Notes under the pieces: generated by a model
Seen by the model: only the letters and a program-made list of their open reading frames with translations
What the model was told of the DNA's origin: nothing
Database searches by the model: none
Assembly (NCBI RefSeq): GCF_004193775.1
Contig: NC_041020.1
Span: 7,273,657 to 7,337,656 of the forward strand
DNA from: Glycine soja
Lineage: Eukaryota > Streptophyta > Magnoliopsida > Fabales > Fabaceae
Reading direction: 5' to 3'
Length of the DNA: 64,000 nt
Shown here: positions 13,726 to 59,727 of the stretch, piece after piece
Layout: every line of letters begins with the position of its first letter
Numbering within the stretch: the first letter of the stretch is position 1
Position numbers and translations under genes: made by a program

Positions 13726-14178
13726 CACTATTAGAAAATACACCTTCTACATCAGTTATTTAAGACCTTTTACATTGGTTTTTAACCGATGTTGAAAGTA
13801 TTATCGTTAACATTGGTTTTACAAAACCGATGTTAATGTAAAATTGACAACATTGGTTATCTAAATAACCAATGTTATATAATAAGAATTACACCAAAAA
13901 AGTGTATGAATGTTGATAGGTGACATCGATTTTTCCACAAAACCGATGTTAACTTATATATTAACATCGATTTTTATACAAAACCGATGTTAATCTACAC
14001 GTTAATATCGATTTTTATACAAAACCGATGTTAATGTTTATAGGTTAACATTAGTTTTTAAACAAAAACTAATGTTAATCTATAAGTTAACATCGGTTTT
14101 TACAAAAACCCGATGTTAACGTGTAGATTAACATCGGTTTTGTATAAAAACCGATGTTAAGTTACACAAACAACATCA
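13726..14178. repeat. CACTA left subterminal repeats
   Basis: At least ten copies of a roughly 12-base motif (aacatcggtttt or its complement aaaaccgatgtt) in alternating orientation, many forming short hairpins such as ttaacatcgatttttatac against its complement. Such repeats are normally bound by the element's own TNPA/TNP1-like protein. Confidence 0.88.
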
Positions 14179-19572: not shown

Positions 19573-19605
<33 letters not shown>

Positions 19606-19832
19606 ATGTGACAATGAGTAGGCTTAAAGTTTAAATTTGCTTTAAGTGCTTCATCAAATGAGTAGGTTGTGTGTGTGTGTGTAAATATGTGACAATGAGT
19701 AGGCTTAAAGTTTAAATTTGCTTTAAGTGCTTCATCAAATGAGTAGGTTGTGTGTGTGTGTGTGTGTAAATATGTGACAATGAGTAGGCTTAAAGTTTAA
19801 ATTTGCTTTAAGTGCTTCATCAAATGAGTAGG

Positions 19833-19921
<89 letters not shown>
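19507..19921. repeat. Minisatellite with a (GT)n tract in every unit
   Basis: Four tandem units start at 19507, 19602, 19683 and 19768. Each has an almost invariant core of about 70 bases (from aaatatgtgacaatgagtag to aaatgagtaggtt) followed by a GT run. The GT runs differ in length, and the last covers 19834-19921. Confidence 0.96.
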
Positions 19922-26034: not shown

Positions 26035-26501
26035 AAGATATGGCTCACGATATTTTTTCAAATCTAAGTTCAACATCGATTTTTTTTTTCAAAACCAATG
26101 TTAACAAAATGATGTTAACGTTAACATCGGTTTTTTCCGGAAAAAACCGATGTTAACGTTAACATCATTTTGTTAACATTGGTTTTGAAAAAAAAATCGA
26201 TGTTGAACTTAGATTTGAAAAAATATCGTGAGCCATATCTTAACTTATCAAACGTTAACATCGGTTTTGTGAAAACCTGATGTTAACAAACTTATGTTAA
26301 CAAACCGATGTTAACTAATTAATGTTAACATCAGTTTTCCAATAACTGATGTTAATGTCACTTCATTAACATCGGATTTTCACAAAACCGATGTTAACGG
26401 ATACACAGTATTTACAATTATGCCACCGCGTTTACGTTAACATCGGTTTTGTTAACAACCATGTTAAGCCGCCGATGTTAAATATGCCTTTTGTAGTAGT
26501 G
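26035..26501. repeat. CACTA right subterminal repeats, including a 207-bp palindrome
   Basis: Dense aacatcggtttt / aaaaccgatgtt motifs run up to the terminal GCCTTTTGTAGTAGTG. Bases 26035-26241 form one near-perfect palindrome with its centre between 26138 and 26139. The arms differ only in the length of one T/A run. Confidence 0.93.
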
Positions 26502-26637: not shown

Positions 26638-29343
26638 TTTGACACCTTCTACCCCGATATACATATTTATATAGTAGAATACATGAAAATGCAAAATTAC
26701 ATAAAATGATTTTATTCAATAAACATAAAAAAGCTCACGTGGGTAAAATGTTAACATTCCCGTTAATCACAAAATTAAAAACTTATCAATTGAGGGTATG
26801 AAAACATTTCCAACTCAAAACAAGGTTGTTCAAGTTTACCAAAGAACTCAAGTTAACAAAATAAAAAAAGTAAAATGACATGTTTGGAACATCATGCAAT
26901 TAAAACAGAAACCCATGCCCCAATGTCACATCCTATCATAGTATTGTGTCCTAACATCTTCCAGCACGAGGTTCCTTAAAGCAATCCACCTAGCCATCTA
27001 CTCCTATGAACACAAGGTTAGAGATCATCACATGATCCAAACACATACGGAGTGAGTTATCACATTCCTAAACAGGTAAAGATAGCCAAAGGCTTATATA
27101 TATATATATATATATATAGTATGAGTATAACAAGTTCAAATTAGAACAATTCATATCACTTTATCACTCTTTGCATAACATCACTTGTCCCAAGGATTTA
27201 ATCATATTCCACACCTTCACATTAATCACGTGTTCAAAACAACAAATCTCAAGTACAACATAACATCTCACACTCACACAATTCATTATCCACCATCACG
27301 TAGCAAGCCACATGGATCATTACACAGGTGTTATGCAACAGATACACTAAGACTCACTTCTATATGCAATATGGTACTATGTCAGTGAAAAACCTCATCG
27401 GACGCTTAGGAGTACATGACAAGACAGACCACATACTGGTAAGTCAGGTCACTCTCACTAGGTAAAATCATAGGGAGACCAGTTAGGGTCACCCTGTTTT
27501 GCGAGAATGCTCCAACCATGTGGGATCGACACATGCTTAAAGGAGTACTCAAACTGGATGTATTTACCCCTAAGGCCAAGACTCCGAAGAGTCCGTCAGG
27601 ACTTCTCCCTCCTGATTCAGGTCTAACCCATAAAACATTTTAGCACGCAAACTCTATCTATAAACTATACAAAACACACGACTCCTCAATTGTTCTCAAA
27701 ATAATTTGAACTCATTGTGCTTCAAAGTGATTCAACTCGTCGAGTTCCCACAGTGGACCCCATCACAATACTCGTCGCCCTTAAAGGGTCTTAAAATCAT
27801 GTGATTTTACAGTTCATAGCTCAGACCTCAATGCACACAACATCTCAATACATGTGTGATCTCTCAATTTAACACATACTCAACTTATCACATACACTCA
27901 ATCTCAATCACAATGTTATAATCTCAAAGCAACATGTTATCACACCTTACAAATCATATACATATCACATAATATTAATATATACATGGCACAAACACAT
28001 ACTTTACCTATAAACTATGCAATACACACAACTACTCAATTTTTTTTAAAATCATTTTAACTCGTCGCACCTCAAAGTGATTCAACTCATCGGGTTCCTA
28101 CAGTGGATCCCATCACAATACTCGTCTCACAAAAACTCGTCGCCATTAAAGGGTCTTACAATTGTGTGATTGCACAATTCATAGCTTACAACTCGATACA
28201 TACAATATCTCAATAAACATGTATCTTGCAATTCATCACATATTCAATTTATCACTTACACAATATTTCAATCACAAATTCACGATCCTAATATAACAAT
28301 TTATCACACTAATCTAGTAAATCTTGTTCAAAACACAAACAAATTATACAAAAATGTTTCTCGCAACATGGGAGAAAAACCCCTCGAACAATTTCACATA
28401 CTCATATAAAAATAAAAGGAATCAAAATCATAGGTCAAAAACATAAAAACACCAACAACACTCAATTTTATCAACCAATTCACATCAGGGCATCAATTGG
28501 TCCATCAAACAAAATAATATCATAATTATAATTGTAAAGGAAGATATACAATACAGTAAACATCCCAAAATAAACTCTAATTTGATCCTCTAAGATCCCT
28601 ACACATGTTCATTCTAACCCCAATTGCGATAAACCCATCATTTACCTCTAAGCGGGCTCACTGCATAGTCCGACAGTGATAACAGTGTCTCTAGTGATTC
28701 TATAAGATTCCTGAAGTTTTTCTTTTGGTTTCTCTGCTAGGGTTTCCAAGCATTAGAGAGAAGGAAAAGGGATTGGAGTCTCAATTTCACTGTCTCTGTG
28801 AGAGCGGTATGTCTCTCTAAAAACATTATATCCCAAATACCAACGGTGGAAATGTGTGGAAATGAGTTTCGGAGGGGGTGTCCAAATTTCTTAATGATCC
28901 AACGGTTAAAGAGTCTGAGATCATAGTTTTACTGAGACATGTTTGAGTGTATACGAGAAAAAGAAAGGGTTTTGAGAGAGGAAGAAGGGAAAACGAATTT
29001 GAGAGGAAGAAAGAGCGTAAGGACATATCATAAATGTAAAAACTGACCTAATATATCTCTATTTATAATTAGGGTACTTTCAGCCTATTATTTACTCTAT
29101 TTTTCTTTATTTTATTATTTTATAAAAATGAACTTTATTTTACTTTCATTGAATAAAATAACCAGTTAAAACATTCCTTTATTTTCTAAAACATCATTTA
29201 ACTCTATTTATTTTCTAATACTATGAAACTCTTATTTTAATTAACAAAAACCCTTTTTCTCTCATTTATTTAATTTCTAAAAACTCTATTAATTTTTAAA
29301 TAAATTTCTTTTTATTTATTTGACAAAAAAATGGGGTGTTACA
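26638..29343 (-). mobile_element. Solo LTR, 2.7 kb family, copy B
   Basis: Plus-strand ends are TTTGACACC (mutated TGTGACACC) and GGGGTGTTACA, flanked by CTTAA (26633-26637) / CCTAA (29344-29348). It is the reverse complement of copy A in layout. A minus-strand TATA box (TATAAAT) sits at 29061-29067. It contains an internal tandem duplication of about 352 bases: the cacagtgg block near 27748 recurs near 28100. No coding region is attached. The short frames inside it are chance. Confidence 0.8.
27096..27118. repeat. (TA)n microsatellite in LTR copy B
   Basis: About 11 TA units following ggcttatata. Confidence 0.9.
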
Positions 29344-38167: not shown

Positions 38168-39112
38168 CTTTACCCTCAAGGCCTAGACTTTGATGAATCC
38201 GTTAGGACCTCACCTTTGTTATTCAGGTCCAAACCCTAAAACAATTTTTGCATGCAAACACTGCTCATGAATTATACAATACACATGACCTCACGCTTGT
38301 TCTCAAACACGTTTCACATATTGTGCTACAATTTAACACTTCGAGTTCCTAACTTGGAACCCTACACTTTCCTTTTAACACTTTGTGCATAAACATTTTT
38401 CTCAAAGTAAACACCAATCAGGTTATTGTATAATTCACAACTCACAACACAAGTATTGTCACATCAAGTATTAATCACACACTTATTCATGACCATATCT
38501 CATGTCCACAATTTAACATCTCACAATGTCACAATCCACCATCACATGTTTATGTGTATCTCACAAATTAATGCATGTTTAACTTTGCACTTATACTCAA
38601 TCTCAATAACAATGTTATAATCTCAAATCAACATGTTATCTCACAATTCATCATATATTCAATTTATCACTTATACACAATTTCAATCACAATTTCATAA
38701 TCTCAATATAATAATTTATCACGCTAATCTAGTAAATCTTGTCCAAAATACAAACAAATTATACAAAAATACTTTTCCCAACATGGGGAGTAAAACCCCT
38801 CAAACAATTTCACATAACCATATCAAAATCAAAGTAATCAAAATCATAAGTCAAAAACACAAAAACACCAAGAGCACTCAATTTTATCAATCACTTCCCA
38901 TCAGGACATCAATTGGTGTGTCAAACACAACAATATCGTAATTATAATTGTAAAGGAAGAATTATAATTCAATAAACATCCCAAAATAAACCATAATTTA
39001 ATCCTCTAAAGATCCATACACATGTTTATTCTAATCTCAATTGCGATAAACACATCTCTTACCTCTAAGTGGGCTCACGTGTGTAGCCTGGCAGTGATAG
39101 TCTAGTAGTTTC
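38168..39112 (-). mobile_element. Truncated LTR of the 2.6 kb family, copy D
   Basis: Matches the reverse complement of copy A from about 11858 to 10900: ctttaccctcaaggcctaga at the start, and gtgggctcacgtgtgta near the end. Neither natural terminus is present. In its middle it follows copy A rather than B/C. Confidence 0.8.
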
Positions 39113-41702: not shown

Positions 41703-42060
41703 CATATTTTGCACAATTAGTTTTCAAATTTGAGTGCAATAAGCTTTTAGATGGACAAATATCCTTTGAATATGAGTCTTAGACAACAAGGGAAATTAGG
41801 ATTAAAAAAAAAAGTTGTTTGATGATAAATAAGTAAATGTTTATGAAAGCGTTAGAATGATTATCCTTTAATTTATACATTTTGCACAATTAGTTTTCAA
41901 ATTTGAGTGCAATAAGCTTTTAGATGTACAAATATCCTTAGAATATGAGTCTTAGACAACAAGGGAAATTAGGATTAAAAAAATATGTTGTTTGATGATA
42001 AATAAGTAAATGTTTATGAAAGCGTTAGAATGATTATCCTTTAATTTATACATTTTTGCA
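41703..42060. repeat. 173-bp tandem duplication
   Basis: Two near-identical units (gcacaattagttttcaaatt starts at 41711 and 41884) and the beginning of a third at 42058. They differ by a few substitutions and A-run length. Confidence 0.95.
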
Positions 42061-42741
42061 CATTTGCTAGATAATAAATAACTAAATAAATAAAAATGTT
42101 TTTTTAAGAAAAATAAATAAAAATATTAAATATTGAAAAGTGGGAATAAAAATAAAAAAGAGAATCCAAATATTTATTGTTTACACATTTTTAATTTATA
42201 TTAAGATTGAAATTATAATTATAAAATCATAATATTATAGGGGGGGGCAAAATAGTACTATATATTCCGTCCTTGCTTTCATGTTGATGATTTCTCTCAA
42301 GCCAGCAACACTTACATTGGAAAGTTGAGGTTAGTCTGATCTTTCTGCTCTTGTTTCTTTAAATATTTGAACTATTGGCTTGATTTGTAAACATTAAGTG
42401 CTTATAATGGCAATTGATTTATTACTTGCTGCAATAATATAACCGAAATTTGTATATTTTTACTGCATTGTGTTTGTAAAATTTAATTTACATCAAATTG
42501 TGATTGTCTTTTTGTTGCATTATTACTTGATCTGCTTCTTGTCCTTGTCATTAGTGTGCATATTTCCGATCTTGCAAGGTACCATATATAGTGATGTATT
42601 GTGTTTAAAAAAACAGCTTATGTTCCGCTGCATAATTTTATGGTTTGCACCTTTATTTGTTCTTTATATCATGAATTTAACATGCTACAGCCTTGATAGG
42701 GTGTGGTCCAACTTCATGTATTGATTGTTAGATGTAGTAGT
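42061..42741. other. Intergenic, no gene seen
   Basis: AT-rich. The 84-codon hydrophobic frame at 42470-42724 has no recognisable family and no supporting context. Confidence 0.45.
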
Positions 42742-43150
42742 CAATACTAGAAAATAGACTTTTAACATCGATTATTTTTTACTTTCAACATCGGTTTTTA
42801 TCTAATGTTGAAACCATCGACGTTAACATTATCCATGTTAATATCAGTTTTCAAAAAATCAATGTTAACATACACTACACAACATCGATGTTCACAAAAA
42901 CTGATCGTATAATAAGAAATATACAAAAACAGCAAAAACAACATCGGTTTTGGTCAAAACCAATGTTGTAAGATGAATAAAAACATCGGTTTTGAAAAAA
43001 AACCGATGTAGAAATTATTTTTACAACATCGATTTTGCTCAAAACTGATGTTGAATATGCTTACGACATTGGTTTTGGCCAAAACCGATGTTGTAAGAGC
43101 ACTTTCTACATTGATTTTAGACCAATAGATGTTGTTTTTTTTTTTTTTTG
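42742..43150. mobile_element. Left end of a second CACTA element (relic)
   Basis: It starts CAATACTAGAAAATAGAC (CACTACTAG with one change), followed by dense subterminal units: aacatcggttttgg, ccaaaaccgatgttgtaaga and relatives. These resemble those of the 13726-26501 element but belong to a distinct variant (ttgtaag spacers). I found no matching right end, so it is either truncated or its right end is beyond recognition. Confidence 0.75.
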
Positions 43151-44638: not shown

Positions 44639-46986
44639 TGTTGGTCAAGTGGCCTCAATAAATTAAGAGGAGGGTGAATTAAGTTTCAAAATTTCTCACT
44701 AACAAACTTTTAACCTGATGAGGACATGACCAAGAGCAAGGGCAAGGATCCACTTGATGGACTTGGAGGACCTATGACAAGGGCTAGAGCAAGGAAAGCA
44801 AAAGAAGCTCTTCAACAACTATTGTCCATACTATTTGAATACAAGCCCAAGTTTCAAGGAGAAAAGTCCAAGGTTGGGAGTTGTATCATGGCCCAAATGG
44901 AGGAGGACTAAATGACACCACTTTGTCTCAATTTTAGAGTGTTTAGTTTGTCTAAATAATGGCCCAATCCTTGTAAAGTTGGCTGACCAAAAATATGTTT
45001 TGGGTTAATCAACTAAAGGGGCTTTAGTTTGGTTTAATTCAAGTTGTAATAAGGGCCCAATTGGCAACTTAGGCATCAACCTTTGGGAGACCAAATGGTG
45101 ATTGGCTTGATGGCTTTTAGGGTGACTTTTGGTTGCCACAATTTCAGTTACACTCAGCCATTAAGTTCTTTTCATTCCCTATGTTAATGGATCATTACTA
45201 AATCTAAGTGGATTGTATTTTCCTTTAATGAAACATATGTAAAATCTGATGGTAAAGCTTCTTTATATGCTGAACCATTTTATCAATAAAGACAAGTTAA
45301 GTTTTATTCAGAAAAATTAGAGTTTATCTCTTTTATCTTAGTGAGAGTGATTCTCCTAAGTTCTTGAGTGATTCAAGAACACCCTAGCTATATCAAAGGA
45401 ATTTCACATCCTTTGTGTGCTGCCCTCACCGGAATGAGTGATTCTTTCCTTCCACCATTTCATCTTCAACCTTATTCTTTCAAACCACAATTCTCAAAAA
45501 TCCAATTCTGCCCAAAATTATCTTGTGACATAATTCTTGTTTTACTTGCTCAAATTAAGTGATTCTTGAGCCTAAATTGAAATTCAAAATGAGATCTTCC
45601 ACCTCGTTTAGGAATCACCTCATTTGGAACTCTGTAGCTTGAGTTATAGCCATTTCTATATTTCTGTCCAGCCGTCACTTCACCTACATTTTTACCATCT
45701 CATTCATCCCTTTTATGTCAAGATCCACCTTATTAAGGCCTAAGAAATTAGCCACTGCCCAACCCTTGAATCTTGCCAATTTCCCATCCTTTTCTTAATC
45801 AATTTCCAAATTTTCCATCAAGGTTTAATCCTAGACGATCTTAAGTCAGCCCTTGTGCAATGAAGGTTCATATCATAACCCCCTTCTAAATGATAGGCTC
45901 AGAATGCAAAATAAGAAGCAACAATCAATTTAATAATGTTTTTTTAAACATGCAAGACAAAATTGATTGTAATAACATAAATGAGATAAGGGAAGAGTGA
46001 AATGCAAACTCAATTTATATTGGTTCGGCCACTTCCAGTGCCTATGTTCAGTTCTCAAGCAATCCACTTGAGATTTTCCACTATCTGTGTAAATCCTTTA
46101 TAGACTTTGAACACACCTTGAGATCCCTCGCCCTTGTGTTCAAAGATTCTCAAGGAGACAAACCGTCTCTTGATTACAACTGACTTTCTGAGATGAACAG
46201 AAAGATTTCTCTCCTTTAGAGTGGATGATACAAATTGAAGATCCTAAAGGAAATTCTCTTTTTTAGAGATGATAATACAAATTGAAGTTCCTAGATGAAC
46301 TCTCAATAGATTTGCAAGTGTTTGCCCAACAGTTGTTGAGATAGCATTTGATAATTAAGTTCTCTTAGAATATCTCTCTCTTGTTTTTCGAAGTCAAACA
46401 CACATATATATTGGCCCTTCGTGCCTTTTCAAAATGGTTTGAAGAGATGTGTCTTTTTAAAAAGTTTTTTCTAAAATTCTTCATTGGTTTGAAGAGTCAT
46501 GTCATTTCAAAGTGTTTTCTGAAGTGTCATTGCTAGAAATCGATTACAAACATCTGGTAATCGATTACATGATTCAAAATTCAAATTCAAAATCCTTTTT
46601 AAAAGTTGTTTTTCAAAATTGTCTTTCGGTAATTGATTACACTGCCTGGTAATCGATTACAGCTTTTAAGTTTCATATTCAAACTTTTCTGAAAGCTGTT
46701 AAAACTATTTTTGCTTTTGGTAATCTATTACAGCCTCTGGTAATCGATTACCAGAGAGAAATACATATTTTTCAAAATGTAATATTTACTTCAAAACTTT
46801 ATAAGATATTTGAAAGCTTAAGTCTTTTAAGGCCAAACCTTTGCAACCTTTTTAAGAGATTCTTTTAACATATAAAGGTTTATCGTAAATCGTTTCTCTT
46901 GATTTCTTGATCTTGACTTGAATCAATGTTGAATAGCTTTAATCTTTTGGCATCATCAAAATCTTCATACAACATATGAACTTACA
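44639..46986 (-). repeat. 3' LTR of the copia element (interrupted)
   Basis: Matches 52524-53725 over about 1180 bases once the nested insertion 44716-45875 plus one TAACC is removed. It begins TGTTGGTCAAGTGG and ends CTTACA. A TATA-like tatatatgtg lies on the minus strand at about 46404-46411. Paired ATCGATTAC-type palindromes start at 46539/46560, 46632/46652 and 46723/46743. Confidence 0.93.
44716..45875 (+). mobile_element. Solo LTR nested in the copia 3' LTR
   Basis: It starts TGATGAGGACATGACC and ends GGTTCATATCA. A perfect 5-base duplication TAACC flanks it (44711-44715 and 45876-45880), and the other copia LTR shows the uninterrupted site. Length 1160 bases. Its first 190 bases are an open frame (44726-44911) reading DPLDGLGGPMTRARARKAKE then ALQQLL. 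This resembles the C-terminal tail that follows pol in soybean Ty3/gypsy elements, so the family is probably gypsy and its LTR overlaps the coding end. Confidence 0.88.
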
Positions 46987-47000
46987 ATCTCCCTTTTTTT
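46987..47000 (-). promoter_or_regulatory. Polypurine tract of the copia element
   Basis: The minus strand reads AAAAAAAGGGAGAT directly against the 3' LTR, the expected start site for plus-strand DNA synthesis. Confidence 0.8.
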
Positions 47001-47522
47001 GATGATGACAACAATCTGAAAACAAGATAAACGATATACGATTTGTAATGCTTGCACTCACTCTTACTCCACCTTAAATTTGCAATTTATTGCCTAGTTT
47101 TTAGATAAGATCTACCCTAGTTTCTCTCCCCCTTTGGCAACATCAAAAAGCCAAAAAGACTGGAGTAAATATCAAAGCCACAAAATCTAGAGCAAGCATC
47201 ATAACCAAAAAACCAATCATCCATTGCAAAACAAAAACTAAATATCCAAAGCAAAGCATAAATCAAATGCTAAATATCTAAAGCAAAGTATAAACCAAAT
47301 GCTAAATATCCAAAGCAAAACACAAAATTAACCAAAGTGCTAAATAACTAAAGCCAAATACAAGGAAAAAAGAGTAAAAATGTCTAGAAAATTAAGAACG
47401 TAAAATACTAGAAACGTCTAAGAATCCGCAGGAGGATCAAAGCAACGTTGAATGAAGCTCATGTCGTCTTCAAGACGTATGATATGGGAGTCCATGGCAT
47501 CAAAGCGATCGTCGATAAAAGC

Positions 47523-48532
47523 TCAAAGATCCCGTAGCTCAATGAGGACGTCATTCAATAAGGAGGAAGAGGTATCTCGTTGCGGTGGTGGAGAGGGTGT
47601 GTGTTCATCGAGAATGGGAGGTGGCAGGTCTTGCTTATGAACCCATTGGCCATCCATATCCTTCCAGTATCCGAAAGAAGTAACAACACCAGCACCAATA
47701 GCAAAAGATCTTTTAACCTTAACAAAAGGCTCATCCTCTAAAGGAACATTGAAATGTTGAAGAAACAAAGTAACAAGATGAGGATACAGAAAAGGTGCAT
47801 TGGCCAGTAATGCCTTATGCATATGGTACCAAACAAGATGGGCCCAGTTAATTTGGCAACCCGTTTGAAGAGCAATAGCAAGATTAAATCCTACTCAGAG
47901 GCCTGAGCAAGATTGGTGGACCGGGGAAGCAAGACTTGACAAAGGATATAATGCATGATGCGACACTCAAAGGTGAATGAGCCAGCAAGCAATCTGTCGG
48001 TCATATCAGCATGGTCATTACAGATCATTTTACAAGCATCATGACTAGAATAAACATGTTTTCAATCATCAACTAGAGTGCCCTCAAAAGGAACACCCTG
48101 ACTGCTTAGTTTAGTAAGAGAATAAAATAGAGATTGATCAACAACAATAGGTATTTGATGCACCTCAGAGAAAATGACTCCATCCTGAATTTTCAAATTA
48201 TTATAAAAGACTCTAACTAATTCAGGATAATACAAAAATGGCATAGACATAAACTCAACTAATTCAAAATTTTGAAACACTTGATAGCAACCAAAGGTTT
48301 CCCCATCAAAGAATTTTACATCTAAATACTTAGGATCGAGAATGACACGATTGGAGAATTGGGAATAGTACCTTTGATGCTGGTCATTAGAAGAAAACAA
48401 AGTTAATGACCTGTGAGATGAAAAAGAAGGAGGATTTGGTGCTGGTGGGTCACCGGATGTGTCGTGGCGACATTGGCCTACAGCGGTGGTGGTGGAGGAG
48501 GATCCCTTTCTCTTCTTTGAGGATTCTGCCAT
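47523..48532 (-). pseudogene. Extra ORF downstream of copia pol
   Basis: A third coding region, between RNase H and the 3' LTR. Reading from the Met at 48532: MAESSKKRKGSSSTT (a basic, nuclear-signal-like start); VILDPKYLDVKFFDGETFGC; FELVEFMSMPFLYYPELVRV; FYNNLKIQDGVIFSEVHQIP; ending GTLVDD at a TGA (48064-48062) where Trp would fit. Beyond it the frame continues (HVYSSHDACKMICNDHADM), shifts near 47890, and ends with the frame 47822-47523 (ALLANAPFLYPHLVTLFLQH; GYWKDMDGQWVHKQ). The LVR.FYNNL..QDG phrase resembles the domain called putative plant transposon protein. I chose 48532 rather than the in-frame Met at 48703, which lies only 21 bases past a TATA box. No transmembrane segment or envelope-type signal is visible. 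Confidence 0.7.
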
Positions 48533-48723
48533 TTTGAGCTTGTTTCTGAAAATTTTGATCAGTGGGTTTTGTAGAGAATTGAAAAAGAAGAAATTTGAGC
48601 TTTGTTTGAAGTGATTTGGACAAGAAACGAGAAAGTTATGGAGATTTGAAGTATTGAGAAAAAGGGGCGCCGTCAAGGAGAGTGAAAGAAAAAAGGGCTG
48701 CACAAGGAGAGAGCAAAATGCAG

Positions 48724-48857
48724 TATTTATAGACAGGGACGAGCTGTAATCGATTATAGCTCATGGTAATCGATTACAGGCGTAACCTGTAACTGACCAA
48801 GCCCGCTGGTAATCGATTACAGCCTATTGTAATGGATTACAGGGAGTGGTAATCAAT
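48724..48857 (-). promoter_or_regulatory. Internal promoter of the copia element
   Basis: On the minus strand, TATAAATA (48731-48724) lies about 190 bases before the Met of the extra ORF. Directly upstream are five ATCGATTAC-type palindromes, starting at 48749, 48769, 48812, 48832 and 48852, spaced 20, 43, 20 and 20. The same motifs lie upstream of the TATA box in this element's LTRs. Promoter activity is inferred. Confidence 0.6.
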
Positions 48858-49214
48858 TACCAGACCCTAAAAACATGGATTTTTCATAAAAATCTAACTA
48901 TTTTTCACTCACAAAACACACATTTAGTATAACAATCATCAACAACAATCAACAATCAAAATATACAATCAAACCAAGTATAAAAAATTCTCAAACACAG
49001 ACATCAAAGATAATCAAAATTTCAAGAACAATCATCAACAACAATCAACAATCATCATAACTATCAAAACATAATTATCAAAGACAATCAAAACTCAAGT
49101 GAAAACAATCATTAAACCTCAATCAACAATAATCATTAAAAACAAACACAATCATCAAGGGCAATCAAAAGTTTAACAATCACAAGAAAAGAAAATAATA
49201 AACAAACAAATTAA

Positions 49215-49976
49215 TTATTTATCTAAGTCATTGATATCTAGGAGTCTTAATTCTCTTCTAATAGCAAATAAGGTTTCTTTGGGGAGAGGTTTTGTAAAGA
49301 TATCACCTAACTGATTCTTTGTGTCAACGAATTCTAGTACACAATTCCTTTTTTGAACATGATCTCTCAAGAAATGATGCCTAATCTCAATATGCTTGGT
49401 TCTCAAGTGTAGAACAGGATTTTTGGATAGGTTTATTGCACTCGTGTTATCACATCGAATGAGAATATGATTAAGAATTAATTCATAGTTAGAAAGTTAT
49501 TGTTTCATCCAAAGTATTTGTGCACAACAACTGCCAGCAGAAATATATTCCGCCTCAGCAGTGGATAAAACAACACTATTTTATTTCTTACTATGCCATG
49601 AAACTAGAGCAGAGCCAATGAAATGACAGGTTCCACTAATGCTCTTTCTATTAGTTTTGCAACCGACAAAATCAGAATAAGAGTATCTTATTAGATTACA
49701 AGTGGAACTTTTAGGATACCATAATTCTAAATTAATAGTGCCTAATAGATATCTCATGATTCTTTTAACTACACTAAGGTGAGATTCTTTGGGATTTGCT
49801 TGAAATCGTGCACACATACAAATACTAAACATTATATCAGGTCTACTTGCAGATAAATAAAGAAGAGATCTGATCATACCTCTATATTTCTTTATGTCTA
49901 TTGACTGATCGGTTTCATCTTTATCCAGATAGCAAGCAGTACTCATTGGAGTAGTCATATGTTTAGCATTTTCCAT
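49215..49976 (-). pseudogene. copia RT C-terminus and RNase H
   Basis: Minus strand. The 49976-49581 frame has MTTPMSTACYLDKDETDQS, KKYRGMIRSLLYLSASRPDI, and a Tyr-Ser-Asp-Phe-Val-Gly-Cys RNase H start where Ala-Asp is usual. TAEAEY (about 49560) follows, then a stop within the WMKQ stretch, and the 49406-49215 frame with LRTKHIEIRHHFLRDHV and TKNQLGDIFTKPLP. The order is normal for copia RNase H. Stops after WHSKK and WMKQ break it. Confidence 0.88.
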
Positions 49977-49986
49977 CCCAAATCCA

Positions 49987-51522
49987 TCATTGACATTCCA
50001 AATTCATTTTGCATATCTTGAGAGAATTCCCTTTAGATATGTCACCGATAATGTTATCAAGAGGGTGGTATCTAGAAGTTCTCCACCCTTTTGGAAGATA
50101 TGCACTTGATTTTGTTTCATCAATTTGAAAGTCTTCATCATTTCCTTTTTCTTTGCCTTTGTGATCTTCACCATGAATATGCATTCCTTCTAAAGAATTT
50201 GAAATATCATCTAGAGTATCCTTTCTTGGCAAAATTAGGTTAGTTTCATCAAAAGCAACATGGATAGATTCTTCAATGATCATAGTTTTTTTGTTATAAA
50301 TTCTAAATGCTTTACTGTGCAAGGAATATACCTTCATTAGATTTTGCATCAAACTTACCAAGTTGTCTTTGCCGTTGTTTAGCACAAAACATTTACATCC
50401 AAACACATGAAGATGAGAAATGTTCGGTTTTCTATCGTTGTATAATTCATATGGAGTTTTCTTTAAGATTGGTCTAATTAAAGCTCTATTCATAATATAG
50501 CATGCAATATTTACAACTTCAGCCCATAAATATTTAGGAAGGATTGTATCATTAAGCAAAGTTCTGGCTATCTTTTTTAAAAATCTATTTTTCCTCTAAA
50601 CTACTCCATTTTGTTGAGGGGTTCTAGGTGCAGAAAAATTATGTTCAATGTCATTTTCATCACAAAATGATTCAAAATCCTTATTTTCAAATTCTCCTCC
50701 ATGATCACTCCTAATTTTGAGATTTTTCTTATTTTGAATAATTTTAGCAAGTTTCTTGAAAGCATGAAAAACATCTCTTTTATGAGTGAGAAATAATGTC
50801 CGTGTAAATCTGGAGTAATCATCAACTATAACAAGAGGATAGTAGTTTCCTCCAAAACTCATAGTTCTAGAGGGACCAAAAAGATCCATATGCAAAAGTT
50901 GTAAGGGTTGAGTTGTAGATACAATATTCTTTGATTTGAAAGAAACCCTTACTTGTTTTCCTTTATGACAAGCATCACATAATCTATCTTTTTCAAATTT
51001 AAGTTTTTGTAAACCAATAACTAAATCTTTAGAAATTAGTTTATTTAAATGTTTCATGTTTATATGGGCAATTCTTTTATGCCATAACCAAGGATCATCA
51101 TCTTTACTAAGAAAACATTGATCATGATTTAGTGTTCTATCTAAATTTATCATGTAAACATTATTTGATCTATAGCCTATATGTTTTATATTTCTATCAT
51201 GTTTGTTTTCAATAACACAATTATGAGAGTCAAATAATACTAGATAACCTTTATCACATAATTGACTAAAACATAGTAAATTGTGCTTAAGACCATTAAC
51301 AAGTAGAACATTTTCAATGGAGGTAGATGAATTCGTACCTATTTTTCCAACTCCAAGGATTATACCTTTATTGTTGTCGCCATAAGTCACATGTCCACTA
51401 TTCTTGGGAGAAATATGAGTGAACTTTGATGCATCTCCCGTCATGTGTTTAGAGCATCCACTATCTATGTACCAACTCTTCTTCAAAGAAACCTCTTCAT
51501 CGCTTTCATAATTTTTGGCCAT
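49987..51522 (-). pseudogene. copia protease and integrase, with the RT core deleted
   Basis: Minus strand. Protease motif WYIDSGCSKHMTG (about 51470). GAG-pre-integrase zinc motif HKRIAHINMKHLNKL...CDACHKGK. Integrase core: LLHMDLFGP, IVDDYSRF, RSDHGGEFEN, APRTPQQNG. A stop follows at 50595, then integrase C-terminus YLWAEVVNIACYIMNRALIR and HVFGCKCFVLNNG, then the linker to RT (LPKGWRTSRYHPLDNIIGDI). After GDISKG the sequence jumps to DMQNEFGMSMMD, then to GMENAKHMTTP. The RT fingers and palm, including the catalytic YVDD, are missing. The element cannot copy itself. Confidence 0.92.
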
Positions 51523-51529
51523 TAGACTC

Positions 51530-52470
51530 AGATTTATAACTTCATTTTCTGAATCTTCGGATGAATGTTGTCTTCCTAAGTGATGTAAGCCTTCTTTGCT
51601 TTCTTATCATTGAAGGTTTTCTTTTAAGATCTTTCTATTCTTTTCTTGAAACTCGGGCAATAATCAACTCTCAGATGTCCTCTTTACGAAGAAACTGAAA
51701 TCATCATCTTCCTCTATTTCATTCAAATCTTCTTTATTACTTCCTTCTTGAATTGAAGATGAAGCTTTAAGTGTGATTCCTTTCTTTTTCTTATCATTCT
51801 CCTCATGTTGATTCAGTCTCATTAGTTCCATTTCGTGTTCTTGAAGCTTTCCAAACAAAGTTGCAAGAGACATGTTAGTAAGATTTCTTGATTCTGTAAT
51901 AGCCGTTATCTTTGATTGTCATTCCCTGCTTAAACATCTTAGAACTTTATTAATAAGATCCTCATTGGGAAATATCTTTCCTAATGATGCAAGATGATTT
52001 ACTATGTGTGTGAATCTCTTTTAAATATCTTGTATAGTTTCGTTTTGATTCATTCTAAACAATTCATATTGATGGGTTAGGATATTTATTCTAGACCTTT
52101 TTACATCCGTTGTTCCTTCATGGGTTACTTGTAAGGTATCCCACATTTCTTTTGCATTCTTGCAATTTGATACTCTAAAATATTCATCCATTCCTAATGC
52201 AAATGTAATTATATTTTTGGGTTTTAAATTATATTGTACCAATTTCTTTTCCTCTTCATCCCATTGTTCCTTAGGGTTTTCTATAGTTGCATTTCTTGCT
52301 ACCATAGTAGGGATGTAAGGACCAATTTCTATGGCTTTCTAGATGTTTAAATCAATAGCCTCTATGAAAATTTGCATACGGGTTTTCCAGTAATGATAAC
52401 CCACACTATTGAATATAGGAGGTCTATTTATAGAGTTCCCTTCGGGAAATAAAAAGTTTGATGAGGCCAT
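51530..52470 (-). pseudogene. copia gag (UBN2 type), degenerate
   Basis: Minus strand, from the Met at 52470: MASSNFLFPEGNSINRPPIF, YHYWKTRMQIFIEAIDLN, a TAG where Trp is expected (about 52341), then the 52305-52021 frame (AKEMWDTLQVTHEGTTDVKR, INILTHQYELFRM), a stop, FTHIVNHLASLGK, and 51873-51664 (LFGKLQEHEMELMRL, EEDDDFSFFVKR). The sequence then jumps to GHLRVD..CPSFKKRIERS in another frame. The Cys-X2-Cys half of the nucleocapsid zinc knuckle is gone, probably by deletion. The expected Gag role is particle assembly and RNA binding. Confidence 0.87.
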
Positions 52471-52507
52471 GACTATTCTGGAAGTTTCTAAACCTTATAC
52501 AAGAATT

Positions 52508-52521
52508 AAGCTCCGATACCA
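52508..52521 (-). promoter_or_regulatory. Primer binding site of the copia element
   Basis: The minus strand reads TGGTATCGGAGCTT, two bases inside the 5' LTR. It differs from the usual plant initiator-tRNA-Met site (TGGTATCAGAGC) at one base. Confidence 0.85.
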
Positions 52522-52523
52522 CT

Positions 52524-53725
52524 TGTTAGTCAAGTGGCCTCAATAACTTAAGAGGGGGGTGAATTAAGTTTCAAAATTTCCCACTAATAAACTTTTAACC
52601 CCCTTCTAAATGATAGGCTTAGAATGCAGAAGAAGCAGCAATCAATTTAATAATATTTTTTTAAACATGCAAGACAAAATTGATTGCAATAACATAAATG
52701 AGATAAGGGAAGAGAGAAATGCAAACTCGATTTATATTGGTTCGGCCACTTCCCATGCCTACGTCCAGTCCTCAAGCAACTCACTTGTGATTTTCTACTA
52801 TCTCTGTAAATCATTTACAGACTTTGAACACACCTTGAGATCCCTCATCCTTGTGTTCAAAGATTCTCCAAGAGATAACCCGTCTCTTGATTAAAACTGA
52901 CTTTATGAGATGAACAAAAAGATTTCTCTCCTTTAAAGTGGATGGTACAAATTGAAGATCCTAGAGGAATTTCTCTCTTTTAGAGATGATAATACAAATT
53001 GAAGTTCCTAGATGAACTCTCAATAGATTTGCAAGTGTTTGTCTAAGAGTTGTTGAGAGAGTTTTTGACAATTAAGTTCTCTTAGAATATTTCTCTCTTG
53101 CTTTTCGAAGTCAGACACACATATACATAGGCCCTTCGTGCCTTTTCTAAATGGTTTGAAGAGATGTATCTTTTCAAAAAGTTTTTTCTAAAATTCTTCA
53201 CTAGTAATCGATTACATGGTTATATTTTAAAGGGTCGTGTCTTTTGAAAGTGTTTTCTAAAGTGCCGTTGCTGGTAATTGATTACAAACATCTGGTAATC
53301 GATTACATGATTCAAAATTCAAATTCAAAACCCTTTTTAAAAAGCTATTTTTCAAAATTGTCTTTTGGTAATCAATTACACTGTCTGGTAATCGATTACA
53401 ACTTTCAAGTTTCAAATTCAAACTTTTCTAAATGTTGTTAAAATCATTTTTGCTTCTGGTAATCGATTACAACCTCTGATAATCAATTACTAGAGAGAAA
53501 TACATATTTTTCAAAATGTAATATTTACTTAAAAACTTTATAAGATATTTGAAAGCTTAAGTCTTTTAAGGCCAAACCTTTGCAACCTTTTTAAGAGATT
53601 CTTTTAACATATAAAGGTTTATTGTAAATCGTTTCTCTTGATTTCTTGATCTTAACTTGAATCAATGTTGAATAGCTTTAATCTTTTGGCATCATCAAAA
53701 TCTTCATACAACATATGCACTTAAA
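52524..53725 (-). repeat. 5' LTR of the copia element
   Basis: 1202 bases, TGTTAGTCAAGTGG to CACTTAAA on the plus strand (final CA mutated to AA). A minus-strand TATA-like box (TATGTATAT) lies at about 53121-53129. Palindrome pairs start at 53277/53298, 53370/53390 and 53462/53482, with a single site at 53207. It shows the uninterrupted target site of the nested element (aacttttaaccccctt). Confidence 0.93.
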
Positions 53726-53730
53726 GCAAG

Positions 53731-54083
53731 ATGGCAACAGAGTAAATTATGCAGCAAATTTTAACCTTTCAAGGTCTCCAACATGACTTTTTATACATTA
53801 TTTAATCACCAATAGACTAAGGAATCGTCTGATAACCTTTGCAACACTAACCATACCTCTGAGCACCTTAATTTTATTATTTTAAGGACAATTTAAACTA
53901 CAATGCAGCAGTTGCGACTCTATTAGGAAAATCATTAAATAAAGTCAAGATATAATCTCAAGATATCAAATACATCATTGAGTTATCATTGAATGGTCTC
54001 ATGACAACACCTTATATGTAGGTTATCAATATATCTAACATGAGTCGAAGTCATATATAAAAGTTATTTGGCAACAAGTTCAT
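53731..54083. other. Spacer after the copia element, no gene seen
   Basis: AT-rich sequence joining the copia target site to the CIPK fragment. Confidence 0.45.
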
Positions 54084-55402: not shown

Positions 55403-57596
55403 TGTCTATGATATCCCAACATACATATTTATATAATATCATACATGAGAATGCGAAATTAATTAAAATAATTTTATTCAATAAACATAAAGGAACTCAC
55501 ATGGGTAAAAGGTTCACATTCACGTTAATCACCAAATTAAAAACTTATCAAATAAGGGTATGAAAACATCTCTGGCCCAAAACAAGGCCATCTAATTTTA
55601 ACAAAAGAAAACAAGTTAAGCAACATAATAACATAAACTAACATATTCAGAACATTATGCAAATAATATAGAAACTCATGCCCAATACCACATCATATCA
55701 TAGTGTTGTGTCTCAGCATCCTCTAGCGCGAGGTTCTTTAAAATTATCCACCTAACCATCTGCTCCCACGAACACAAGGTTCAAGATTATCACAGGACCC
55801 AAACACAAACAACACACGGGGAGTGAGTTATCATATTCCTAAACAGGTAAATCTAAACGAAGCACATATATATAATATAAGTATAATGAGCTCAACTTAG
55901 CATAATTCACATCATTTTACCACTCATTGTGTAACTTCACTTGTCCCAAGGATTTAATCACAAAATCAATTTCATACCTTCACATTAATCAGGTGTTCAG
56001 AACAACACGTCTCAAGTACAACACAATATCTCACACTCACACAATTCATTACCCACCATCACGTAACAAGTCATAATAGTCATTATGCAAGTATTATGTA
56101 ACAGATACACTAAGACTCAATCTTATATGCAATGTGGTACCATGTCAGTGAAAAACCTCGCCGGGAGCCTAGGAGTACATGGCAAGACAAACTACACGCT
56201 GGTAAGTCAGGTCACTCTCACTAGGTAAAATCATAGGAAGACCAGCTAGGGTCACGCTGTTTTGTGAGACTACTTCAACCATGTGAGATTGACACAAGCT
56301 TAAAGGAGCATTCAAACCGGGTGTATTTACCCCAAGGTCTAAACTCTGAAGAGTCAGTTAGGACCTTTCCTTCCCAATTCAGGTCCAACCTAGAAAACAT
56401 TTTAGCACGCAGATTGTATCAATGAATAGTAAAAAACACACGACTCTTGAATTATTCTCAAAATAATTTTAACTCGTCGTGCCTCAAAGTGATTAAACTC
56501 GTCGAGTTCCCATAATGGATCTCATCACAATACTCGTCGTGCATTAACTTGTCACCCTTAAAGGGTCTTACAACCGTGTGATTGTATGGTTGATAGCTCA
56601 CAACTCAATGCACACAACATCTCAATACATGTGTGATCTCTCAACTTATCACATACACTCAATCTCAATCACAATGTTATAATCCCAAAGCAACATATTA
56701 TCACACTCATGAATCATATACACATCACACAATATTAATATATGCATGGCACAAACACAAACTTTACCTATAAACTATGTAATACACACAATTACTCAAT
56801 TGTTTTCAAAATCATTTTAACTTTTCGCGCCTCAAAATGATTCAACTTGTTAGGTTCCCACAGCGGATCCCATCATAATACTCGTCGCGCATTAACTCGT
56901 TGCCCTTAAAGGGTCTTACAGTTGTATGATTACACAATTGATAACTCACAACGCAATACATACAATATCTCAATACACATGTATCTCACAATTCATCACA
57001 TATTCAATTTATCACTTACACACTATCTCAATCACAATTTCATGATCTCAATATAATAATTTAACACACTAATCTAGTAAATCTTTTTCCAAAACACAAA
57101 CGAATTATACAAAAATGCTTCTCACAACATGGGGAGTAAAACCCCTCATACAATTTTACATAATCATATCATAATCAAAGGAATCAAAATCATAGGTTCA
57201 ATAATCACAAAAAAAAAAACCAAGAGCACTCAATTTTGTAGAAGCAAAGCTTCATGGAGAATCAAAGGTAATTTAAAGGTGTTTTGATGATAACAATGAT
57301 GATAACAAAAGATGATGACAAAAGGTGATGACAAAAAGCTCAAAGATCAATCAGAGAACAACTCAGGTGAATCAAGAACAATTCAAGAGTTCAAGATAAG
57401 AATCAAGAAGAATTCAAGACTCAAGAAGAAAGTTTAGAGTCAAGAATCAAGATTCAAGGTTCAAGATCTCAAGAATCAAGATCAAGATTCAAGAATCAAG
57501 AGAAGGCTTAATCAAGATAAGTATGAAAAGTTTTTCTCAAAAATTGAGTAGCACATGATTTTTCTCAAAACATGTTTACCAAAGAGTTTTTACTCT

Positions 57597-57836
57597 CTGG
57601 TAATCGATTACCAGATTGTTGTAATCGATTACCAGCAGCAAAATTGTTTTGAAAGAGTTTTCAAATTGAATTTACAACGTTCCAATTAATTTCAAAAAGC
57701 TGTAATCGATTACAATGTTTTGGTAATCGATTACCAGTGCCTTTGAACGTTGAAATTCAAATTCAAATGTGAAGAGTCACATCCTTTCACATAAAAGCCT
57801 TGTGTAATCGATTACACTGATTTGGTAATCGATTAC
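57597..57836 (+). promoter_or_regulatory. Three phased pairs of ATCGATTAC palindromes
   Basis: ATCGAT cores start at 57603/57624, 57705/57725 and 57807/57828. Within pairs the spacing is 21, 20 and 21 bases; between pairs it is 102 bases both times. Most sites extend to ggtaatcgattacc. They end about 130 bases upstream of the TATA box. Function is inferred only from placement and repetition. Confidence 0.85.
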
Positions 57837-58139
57837 CAGTGATTGTTTCTGAATAAATCAAAAGATGTAACTCTTCAAAAGGTTTTTGACTTTTTCAAAT
57901 TGGTTTTAAGTTTTTCTAAAAGTTATAACTCTTCTAAATGGTCTTCTTGACCAGACATGAAGAGTCTATAAAAGCAAGGTTTTGTTTTGCATTTTCATTC
58001 ATTCATTCAATCTTGAACACTTATTCAGACAATCCTTTATAAGCCTTGAATCTCTTTAAACGTCTTCTTCTTCTTTGTACCAAAAGCTTTCTGAAGTTTT
58101 TCTGGTTTTCTAAACCTTGAAAACTTGAGTTATTCATCT

Positions 58140-58430
58140 TTTCATTCTCTTCTCCCTCTACCAAAAAGAATTCGCCAAGGACTAACCGCCTGAATTCTTT
58201 TTGTGTCTCTCTTCTCCCTTTTCCAAAAGAACAAAGGACTAACCGCCTGAATTCTTTTGTGTCTCCCTTCTCCCTTGTCAAAGAATTCAAAACGACACAG
58301 TCTGAGAATTCTTTTGATTCTTCCCATTCCCTTATAAAAAAGTGTTCAAAGGACTAACCGCCTGAGAATTCTTTTGTATCCTTATTCACAAAGTATCAAA
58401 GGTTTAACAGCCTGAGATCTTTGTCTTAAC
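58140..58430 (+). repeat. Tandem hairpin units, AAAAGAATTC / GAATTCTTTT stem
   Basis: Five units carry the phrase ggactaaccgcctgaattc or a decayed form, near 58180, 58236, 58291, 58351 and 58401. Most can fold because a CAAAAAGAATTC-type arm precedes the phrase and GAATTCTTTTTG follows it (12 pairs in the first unit, about 8 in the second). The frames read on the minus strand here are by-products. Confidence 0.8.
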
Positions 58431-58613
58431 ACATTGGAGGGTACATCCTTTGTGGTACAAGTAGAGGGTACATCTACTTGGGTTTGACTGAGAACAAGAG
58501 AGGGTACATCTCTTGTGGATCAGTTCTAGTGGAGGGTACATCCACTAAGTTCAAAGAGAACAAGGGAGGGTACATCCCTTGTGGATCTTTGCTTGTAAAA
58601 GGATTTTTACAAG
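58431..58613 (+). repeat. Five hairpins with one loop (AGGGTACAT) and different stems
   Basis: Invariant 9-base loops are at 58438-58446, 58465-58473, 58501-58509, 58533-58541 and 58567-58575. The flanking arms are complementary in each case but differ in sequence: CAAGTAG/CTACTTG, ACAAGAG/CTCTTGT, TAGTGG/CCACTA, ACAAGGG/CCCTTGT. The first, CACATTGG/CCTTTGTG, has two mismatches. A sixth hairpin (CTTGTAAAA, loop GGAT, TTTTACAAG) follows at 58592-58613. They lie downstream of the TATA box and so would be in the RNA. Confidence 0.88.
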
Positions 58614-59727
58614 GTTGAAAGAAATCTCAAGGACCGCAGGTCGCTTGGGTACTGGATGTAGGCACGGGTTGTTGCCGAACCAGTATAAAAACTCTTGTGT
58701 GTTTGCTTCCTTCTTCCCTACTCTTTTACTTTCTGCTGTGCATTTAATTTCCGCTTTTACTTTCTGTTAAGTTTCTCTTCTACTCCTCATTCTCTTAACA
58801 ATTTAGTAAAAGCCTTAGAAGAGTAATTTTTTAATTAGTAAAGGTTTAGGAATAATTAATTTAACCCCCCTTCTTAATTATTCTGAGGTCACTCGATCCA
58901 ACAAATTTTATCAACCAATTTGCATTAGGATATCAATTGGTCCGTCAAACATAACAATCTTGTGATTATAATCATAAAGGCAGAATTATCATCATAAACA
59001 TCCCAAAAAAATCCCAATTTGATCATCTAAGGACCCTTACACATGTTCATTTTAACTCCAATTGCGATAAACTCATTCATAAGCGGACTCACGTGTGTAG
59101 TCCGATGACAATAACAATGTCTCTAGCAGTTCCCTGGGATTCCTCAAGCTTTTCCTTTGGTTGTTCTGTTATGATTTCTAAGCATTAGAGAGAAACAAAA
59201 GGGATTGGAGCCTCAATTTTACTATCTCTGTGCGAGGGACGTTTCTCTCTCTATAGACATTATTTCTCAAATCCCAAAAGTAAAAATGTGCGAAAATGAG
59301 TTCTGAAGATGATGTTCAAATTTCACGAGGATCTAACGGTTATTGGGATTATAATTTTATTAAGACATGTTTGAATGTATGCAAAAAAAAAGAAGATATT
59401 AGAAGAGAAAGAAGGAAAAAAAATTTAAGACAAAGATGGAGGGTACAAATGTTTAAATTAAGTTAGTTAGGATACTTACTTTCAACCTATTATTTACTTT
59501 ATTTATATTTTATTTTATTATTTTATAACAAAGGAAATTTTATTTCTCTTTTATTAAATAAATAATCAATTAAAACATCTTTTTATTCTCTAAATCATTA
59601 TTTTATATTATTTATTTTCTAATATTATCAAACTCTTATTTTAAGTAATAAAAAATTCTTTTTTTTCATTTATTTAATTTCTAAAAAAAATTATTAATTT
59701 TTTATTTTACGGAAAACGGGTGTGAGA

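What the first reader, a model, noticed from the sequence alone, without database searches (positions are those of the whole stretch)
58431..58613. Five hairpins with an invariant AGGGTACAT loop and compensated stems
Within 140 bases the same 9-base loop occurs five times, each between complementary arms. The arms differ between units yet stay paired (CAAGTAG/CTACTTG, ACAAGAG/CTCTTGT, TAGTGG/CCACTA, ACAAGGG/CCCTTGT). Tandem duplication alone would copy the stems too. Different stems that still pair imply either selection for the fold or a copying process that makes small inversions around a fixed loop. The array lies after the LTR's TATA box, so it would be in the RNA leader. A sixth hairpin (58592-58613) and a TACTGG/CCAGTA hairpin near 58651-58686 follow. 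It could be a packaging, dimerisation or translation element, or a protein-binding array.
Basis: partly seen in the sequence, partly recalled or inferred. Interest (0 to 1): 0.87.

Follow-up and report, generated by a model that had tools for sequence, protein, structure and literature searches.

The report
Retrotransposon RNA leader hairpin array
A row of small hairpins that repeat one loop on different stems sits in what looks like the untranslated RNA leader of a very abundant plant retrotransposon, and comparison with related families suggests that evolution kept the folded RNA rather than the letters.

Summary
Five AGGGTACAT copies lie at 58438-58575 (0.43 expected). Four close 7-8 bp stems; the first is weak. 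The array lies in a solo LTR (57237-58903, 5-bp target duplication) of a copia-type element with Sirevirus signatures, in an apparently Glycine genome. Neighbouring loop pairs occur 19,888 times genome-wide (reversed-pattern control 2).

Two results point to a real RNA leader. ATG triplets collapse at the TATA box: one 5' LTR copy has 0 in 924 nt (8.1 expected), with a gag frame starting 28 nt past the LTR. And the last array stems plus the two stems after it recur in other families with other letters: in 21 leaders, 35 cells in 11 of 29 pairs changed on both sides and still pair (shuffle maximum 18). Between families one-sided changes favour G.U over A.C (25:7); among decaying copies they do not (27:39).

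I read it as a fold-selected 5' leader whose stems display G-rich loops, most likely for Gag and packaging. The fold is well supported, the function is inferred. Strand-symmetric template switching is the main rival; antisense folding z-scores do not help me.

The parts
57237..58903 (+). solo LTR (TG...CA, 1667 bp) that contains the array
   Evidence: flanks join in paralogous repeats at 38656-38978 and 28241-28544; AATTT at 57232-57236 and 58904-58908
57600..57836 (+). six exact GTAATCGATTAC palindromes upstream of the TATA box
57966..57974 (+). TATA box CTATAAAAG; transcription start inferred about 30 nt downstream
   Evidence: ATG per 100 bp falls from 1.3-2.7 to 0.10-0.68 after it in 31 copies
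58162..58423 (+). second hairpin series upstream, loops around GGACTAACCGCCTG (58162-58203, 58224-58259, 58280-58314; weaker ones to 58423)
   Evidence: covarying pair AT 24, TA 12, TT 3 in the last unit
58430..58454 (+). H1, weak hairpin: CACA..TGTG outer, GGA..TCC inner, loop GGGTACA
58458..58480 (+). H2: CAAGTAGA / TCTACTTG, loop GGGTACA
58486..58525 (+). H3: outer GACTGA/TCAGTT, inner ACAAGAGA/TCTCTTGT, loop GGGTACA
58526..58548 (+). H4: CTAGTGGA / TCCACTAA, loop GGGTACA (outermost pair broken in this copy, C-G in 42 of 63 arrays)
58552..58591 (+). H5: outer CAAAGA/TCTTTG, inner ACAAGGGA/TCCCTTGT, loop GGGTACA
58592..58613 (+). H6: CTTGTAAAA..TTTTACAAG (9 bp), present in other families at the same place
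58626..58649 (+). H7: CTCAAG-GACC-GCA-GGTC-G-CTTGGG; in other families CTCAAG-TGGGTTG-CTTGAG
58650..58685 (+). H8: TACTGG..CCAGTA around a block (GTAGGCAC..GCCGAACCAGTATAAA) found in all other-family leaders that I aligned
58865..58870 (+). C run near the LTR 3' end, fits the Sirevirus polyC integrase signal
   Evidence: PMC2829016

Best explanation
The array is part of a roughly 900-nt RNA leader (inferred R-U5 plus 28 nt) of a very abundant Sirevirus-like copia retrotransposon; the window holds only a solo LTR copy. Shown by sequence: the leader is nearly ATG-free from the TATA box to the gag start, it is packed with hairpins, and its last stems are kept in place in other families through changes on both sides. 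Inferred: selection acts on the fold of the sense RNA, and the stems mainly present short G-rich loops (GGGUACA here; GGG-bearing loops in most H5 and H7 analogs). Most likely mechanism: the loops are repeated binding sites for the element's own Gag, which has a CCHC zinc knuckle, and mark genomic RNA for packaging or pairing, while ribosomes scan through these separate short hairpins to the gag AUG. The five units arose by duplication of one- and two-hairpin pieces whose stems then diverged under compensation.
For: ATG collapse at the TATA box: 0 in 924 nt of L005 (8.1 expected, 0 of 1000 shuffles as low), 1 in 906 nt of the window copy (7.0 expected), no shortage upstream; 26 against 93 expected in 21 leaders of several families. 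gag frame 28 nt after the LTR in L005, copia gag E 5.7e-27 and CCHC knuckle. Covariation between families: 93.0% of cells paired, 35 both-side cells in 11 of 29 pairs, shuffle maximum 18 cells. Six compensated pairs between the duplicated units. G.U:A.C 25:7 between families against 27:39 among copies, Fisher p 0.0006. Retroviral nucleocapsid binds exposed guanosines in leader structures (PMC7599994 passages).
Against: No transcript, probing or binding data. The 21 rows are related and were picked by eye; by distinct pair types the G.U:A.C ratio is only 11:5. The antisense strand has the more extreme folding z in 20 of 21 leaders, though the sense fold has the lower energy in 21 of 21. Most variation among copies is one-sided (GU 44, AC 64, other 52). 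H4 loops of other families vary, and L264, L268 (H5) and L269, the two window D copies and the window copy (H7) lack a GGG loop. Helices were chosen from the same kind of data; slid by +1 column they still give 15 both-side cells in 7 pairs.
Confidence: 0.45

Rival explanations
1. Mutational origin without selection on RNA: template switching during DNA replication or reverse transcription at imperfect hairpins copies one arm from the other, so stems stay paired while their letters drift.
For: Template switching is proposed to create and maintain hairpins (PMC8794818, abstract and section 8). Reverse transcription is part of this element's life. Antisense folding z is as extreme as or more extreme than sense. 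Pair 58527/58547 changes only jointly, 5 times on a tree, though exchange of the block between copies could do that too.
Against: The process treats both strands alike, yet between families G.U exceeds A.C 25:7 while decaying copies show 27:39. It does not explain the same hairpin positions in several families or the ATG-free leader. No flipped loop in 63 arrays.
Confidence: 0.2
2. Translation element: the leader structure governs ribosome scanning, shunting or gag output, with no role for Gag binding.
For: The ATG-free leader ends at the gag start; the hairpins lie on the scanning path.
Against: A conserved loop sequence on changing stems (GGGTACA in five units) is not needed for a mere barrier; no direct test.
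Confidence: 0.15
3. Dimerisation array: the GUAC core of the loops forms kissing contacts between two genomic RNAs.
For: GUAC is self-complementary and present in all five loops; Ty1 RNA uses complementary hairpin loops for dimerisation (PMC5454406 abstract).
Against: The analogous H5 and H7 loops of the other families aligned (AGGGTTG, TGGGTTG, GAGGGA and the like) lack GUAC.
Confidence: 0.08
4. DNA-level array: palindromic repeats in the LTR that bind a protein as double-stranded DNA, like the known Sirevirus repeated motifs.
For: Sirevirus LTRs carry many palindromic repeated motifs (PMC2829016 section 9), and this LTR has GTAATCGATTAC boxes.
Against: Here the asymmetric loop is kept and the palindromic arms vary, the reverse of those boxes, and the array lies downstream of the TATA box while those boxes lie mostly upstream.
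Confidence: 0.07

Closest known systems
Sirevirus LTR conserved motifs (Bousios et al. 2010, PMC2829016; abstract, passages and section 9 seen)
   Same: LTR with TATA box near the middle, palindromic boxes upstream of it, polyC run near the 3' end, characteristic PPT/LTR and LTR/PBS junctions
   Different: The paper's repeated motifs are palindromes upstream of the TATA box; the word hairpin does not occur in its main text. This array is downstream, with a fixed loop and changing stems
Ty1 RNA leader, TIPIRT domain (Gamache et al. 2017, PMC5454406; abstract seen)
   Same: Copia-type element whose 5' RNA end folds and serves translation start, packaging and priming
   Different: Ty1 uses a pseudoknot and two hairpins with complementary loops; here many hairpins share one loop
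Retroviral packaging signals (review PMC7599994; passages seen)
   Same: Hairpins with exposed guanosines in the 5' leader that nucleocapsid binds
   Different: No five-fold array of one loop was seen in the passages; no Gag binding has been tested here
BARE retrotransposon RNA pools (Chang et al. 2013, PMC3735527; passages seen)
   Same: Plant copia element with RNA set aside for packaging; packaging and dimerisation signals are mentioned
   Different: No hairpin array in the passages read; BARE uses two TATA boxes
Template-switch hairpins (Monttinen and Loytynoja 2022, PMC8794818; abstract and section 8 seen)
   Same: Stems whose two sides change together
   Different: That is a mutational explanation studied in RNA genes; the G.U against A.C contrast here argues for selection on the sense strand

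Membership tests
Ty1/copia LTR retrotransposon | copia-type Gag encoded just after the LTR | tested here: met
   L005 frame: Retrotran_gag_2 5.7e-27, zf-CCHC 3.7e-6; only one related copy examined
Sirevirus | PBS directly after the 5' LTR and a G-rich PPT directly before the 3' LTR | tested here: met
   AGTGGTATCAGAGC after L005 and L008; gggggaga before L002, L004 and L023
Sirevirus | TATA box near mid-LTR and polyC run near the 3' end | tested here: met
   57966-57974 and 58865-58870, compared with PMC2829016
Sirevirus | palindromic repeated motif with CGG-CCG core | tested here: not met
   palindromes present (six GTAATCGATTAC) but without that core; the paper lists Tnd-1 (ACAATCGATTGT) as an exception and finds the motif in 13 of 21 elements, so it does not define the genus
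Sirevirus | multiple PPTs, reverse-transcriptase phylogeny | not tested
   only flanks of LTR copies were fetched
Retroelement packaging signal | located in the genomic RNA leader | tested here: inconclusive
   position and ATG depletion fit; no transcript data
Retroelement packaging signal | conserved RNA fold | tested here: met
   covariation in 21 rows above 1000 shuffles, relatedness not corrected
Retroelement packaging signal | Gag binding and need for packaging | not testable with these tools
   needs binding or packaging assays
Any Rfam family | match at the gathering score | tested here: not met
   57200-59000: 5 matches at E up to 1, all below gathering, none on the array

The most novel reading that the evidence does not exclude
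Sirevirus-like elements carry a long AUG-free leader built as a string of modular, fold-selected hairpins in which stems are free to change and loops are the signal; in this lineage the GGGUACA module was multiplied to five units, giving an avidity array for Gag or a host protein, a packaging-signal architecture that I know from no retrovirus and not from Ty1.
Probability: 0.35. Interest if true: 0.8.

Novelty: new variant of a known kind. Interest (0 to 1): 0.62.

Why it matters
Little is known of how plant LTR retrotransposons mark their RNA for packaging or translation, and Sirevirus-like elements fill much of many plant genomes. A family with thousands of copies in one genome and visible compensatory changes lets a leader fold be mapped by sequence alone. 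The contrast of G.U against A.C between element evolution and post-insertion decay is a simple test of RNA selection against template switching that can be repeated on other repeats.

Tried and rejected
I take them for chance from the pattern length and the size of those collections; I did not examine them one by one. A search of viral contigs with an integrase-region frame of the window's second element found no relative. Small inversions were rejected: they flip loops, not arms. GUAC kissing was downgraded. GGG as an invariant of all loops was rejected: H4 loops vary. A first covariation table was discarded because overlapping hits and an off-by-one helix spoiled it; the outer-stem rows were off by one and are replaced; one search timed out; one search failed half way. 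H6 rows with 5 odd copies are an alignment shift. A genome-wide joint count of two stem pairs was asked for and never answered.

Row choices: the family alignment has 21 rows: the window copy, two window copies of family D, 2 of 12 newly fetched B copies, one flank in L025, and 15 picked by eye for diversity from the roughly 100 places listed of 2215 matches. The search anchor fixes the left letters of three H5-outer pairs in those 15 rows. In one search the copy-level tally leaves out H6 and two pairs (58486, 58526); with them, and both measured on 62 rows without L238, it is GU 44, AC 64. One search read 39 of 64 rows, the window copy counted twice.

Full report
What is there. The window holds AGGGTACAT exactly five times, all between 58438 and 58575 on the + strand; dinucleotide shuffles give 0.43 on average and at most 3. 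The heptamer GGGTACA is closed by 3, 8, 8, 7 and 8 Watson-Crick pairs; 22 of 63,930 window positions close a 7-nt loop with at least 7. Hairpin 1 is weak, the other four are strong. Hairpins 3 and 5 have outer stems beyond a GA/GGA internal loop. The stretch 58424-58620 folds at -72.6 kcal/mol, z -5.59; its antisense at -59.9, z -6.42. The inferred leader 58000-58903 has z -5.63 on 20 shuffles.

Where it is. 57001-57237 and 58904-59000 lie next to each other in two paralogous repeats of the window (38656-38978 and 28241-28544). The insertion 57237-58903 begins TG, ends CA and is flanked by AATTT on both sides: a solo LTR. Among 30 fetched copies some are 5' LTRs followed by AGTGGTATCAGAGC (L005, L008) or 3' LTRs preceded by gggggaga (L002, L004, L023). 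In L005 a gag frame starts 28 nt after the LTR and matches copia gag and a CCHC knuckle. TATA box, polyC run and palindromic boxes agree with the Sirevirus description (PMC2829016: abstract, passages, section 9), although the boxes lack the usual CGG-CCG core. The genome has 1.01 Gb in 1119 contigs; that it is Glycine is my inference, no call names it. The reverse transcriptase was not examined.

How common. Neighbouring loop pairs (AGGGTACAT, 12-40 bases, AGGGTACAT) occur 9958+9930 times, the reversed pattern 1+1 times.

Is it in RNA? In 31 copies with a TATAAAAG box, ATG runs at 1.3-2.7 per 100 bp in the 500 bp before it and at 0.10-0.16 in seven of nine bins after it; the other two have 0.68 and 0.26. 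I ascribe the 0.68 bin to CpG decay of an ACGTAG block, which was not counted separately. L005 has none in 924 nt (8.1 expected, 0 of 1000 shuffles as low), the window copy one in 906 nt (7.0 expected, 1 of 1000 as low); the U3 parts have 16 and 15 against 12.2 and 12.6 expected. In 37 copies measured from TATA box to LTR end the count ranges from 0 to 6. The 21 leaders of several families have 26 against 93 expected, with L257, L260 and L271 at 4-5 each. This is what a scanned leader ending at the gag AUG would show. It is indirect; I have no transcript data.

Are the stems kept through compensated changes? Within the window, hairpins 2+3 and 4+5 behave as duplicates: of 22 pairs, 6 differ on both sides and still pair, 1 is one-sided and broken, 15 are the same. 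Among 63 arrays (the window's and 62 others, mostly picked as near copies or from the first 9 Mb of one contig), pair 58527/58547 is TA 46, AT 17 with none broken; on a tree of upstream columns it changes 5 times on each side, always jointly, which exchange of a whole block between copies could also cause. A pair of the upstream hairpin series is AT 24, TA 12, TT 3. Most other variation among copies is one-sided: GU 44, AC 64, other 52, both sides 20, of which 16 are the pair just named.

Between families the picture is sharper. Family B, for example L250, keeps GGGTACA three times and GGGTA once on other stems; its H3 outer stem is AGTGAAC/GTTCGCT. More families came from a nearby anchor (1118+1097 matches, control 0+0). 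In 21 aligned rows the analogs of H4, H5 outer, H6 and H7 give 93.0% paired cells, 35 both-side cells in 11 of 29 pairs and 26 extra pair types. In 1000 shuffles the paired fraction has mean 0.872 and maximum 0.890, both-side cells mean 8.6 and maximum 18; 11 pairs are reached once and 26 types 6 times. Helices slid by 1-3 columns pair at 35-55%, the best of them (+1) with 15 both-side cells in 7 pairs. A subset of 11 rows gives 20 cells in 10 pairs, shuffle maxima 12 and 8. Limits: the rows are related and picked by eye, the helices come from folds and scans of the same kind of sequence, and the anchor fixes some left letters of H5 outer.

RNA selection or template switching? Template switching can make and repair hairpins (PMC8794818: abstract and section 8) and treats both strands alike; selection on sense RNA tolerates G.U but not A.C. 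Between families the cells are GU 25, AC 7, other mismatch 13; among family A copies GU 27, AC 39, other 27; Fisher p 0.0006. By distinct pair types it is 11:5, so it is suggestive, not final. Against it, the antisense strand has the more extreme z in 20 of 21 leaders, although the sense fold has the lower energy in 21 of 21. Simple inversion is excluded for this family: 0 of 63 arrays hold an exact flipped loop, against 261 exact forward loops; at one mismatch 2 against 366.

What it does. H5 and H7 loops contain GGG in most of the 21 rows (GGGTACA, AGGGTTG, TGGGTTG, GAGGGA and similar in H5; TGGGTTG or CGGGTTG in H7). Exceptions are L264 and L268 in H5, L269, both window D copies and the window copy in H7, and H4 loops vary. 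Retroviral nucleocapsid binds exposed guanosines in the leader (PMC7599994, passages), and this element's Gag has a CCHC knuckle, so I favour a Gag/packaging array. Ty1 is a copia precedent for leader hairpins needed in cis (PMC5454406, abstract). Kissing through GUAC is less likely because the analogous H5 and H7 loops of other families lack it. A translation role comes next, given the AUG-free leader.

Novelty. No Rfam family reaches its gathering score in 57200-59000. A search for SIRE1, soybean, LTR, leader, hairpin (at least 4 terms) held 12 papers; PMC2829016 among them has no 'hairpin', PMC7385966 has both words and was not opened. A looser search had 17,367 papers, of which I saw 15 titles. 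Only open-licence PMC papers are held. So absence from print is likely but not shown. I rate it a new variant of a known kind, a structured retroelement leader.

Noticed in passing
45870-53760 (- strand): A second Sirevirus-like element with two related LTRs; frame 50596-51603 matches gag_pre-integrs, Pol_BBD and integrase core. Its leader has its own hairpins and served as family D.
   Followed up: partly
26081-26196: Near-perfect long palindrome: 55-base complementary arms around 6 bases, with AACATCGGTTTT-like motifs also seen at 13849-14160 and 42983-43009, perhaps ends of a DNA transposon family.
   Followed up: no
28241-28544, 38656-38978, 57001-57237/58904-59000: Three copies of one dispersed repeat; the third was split by the solo LTR and so gives the empty site.
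   Followed up: partly
41706-42062: 173-bp unit in tandem, 2.1 copies, 97% matches.
   Followed up: no
19583-19852: 81-85-bp tandem unit, 3.2 copies at 95-96%, next to a long TG run.
   Followed up: no
58162-58423: A second, upstream hairpin series in the same leader with a different kept loop (ACTAACCGCCTG) and AAAGAATTC/GAATTCTTT-like arms; ACTAAC followed by pyrimidine runs also resembles a plant branch point with a 3' splice site (recalled, not tested).
   Followed up: partly
L230 (family A copy): One copy has a 14-base direct duplication inside the array between hairpins 3 and 4, an example of how the spacers grow.
   Followed up: no
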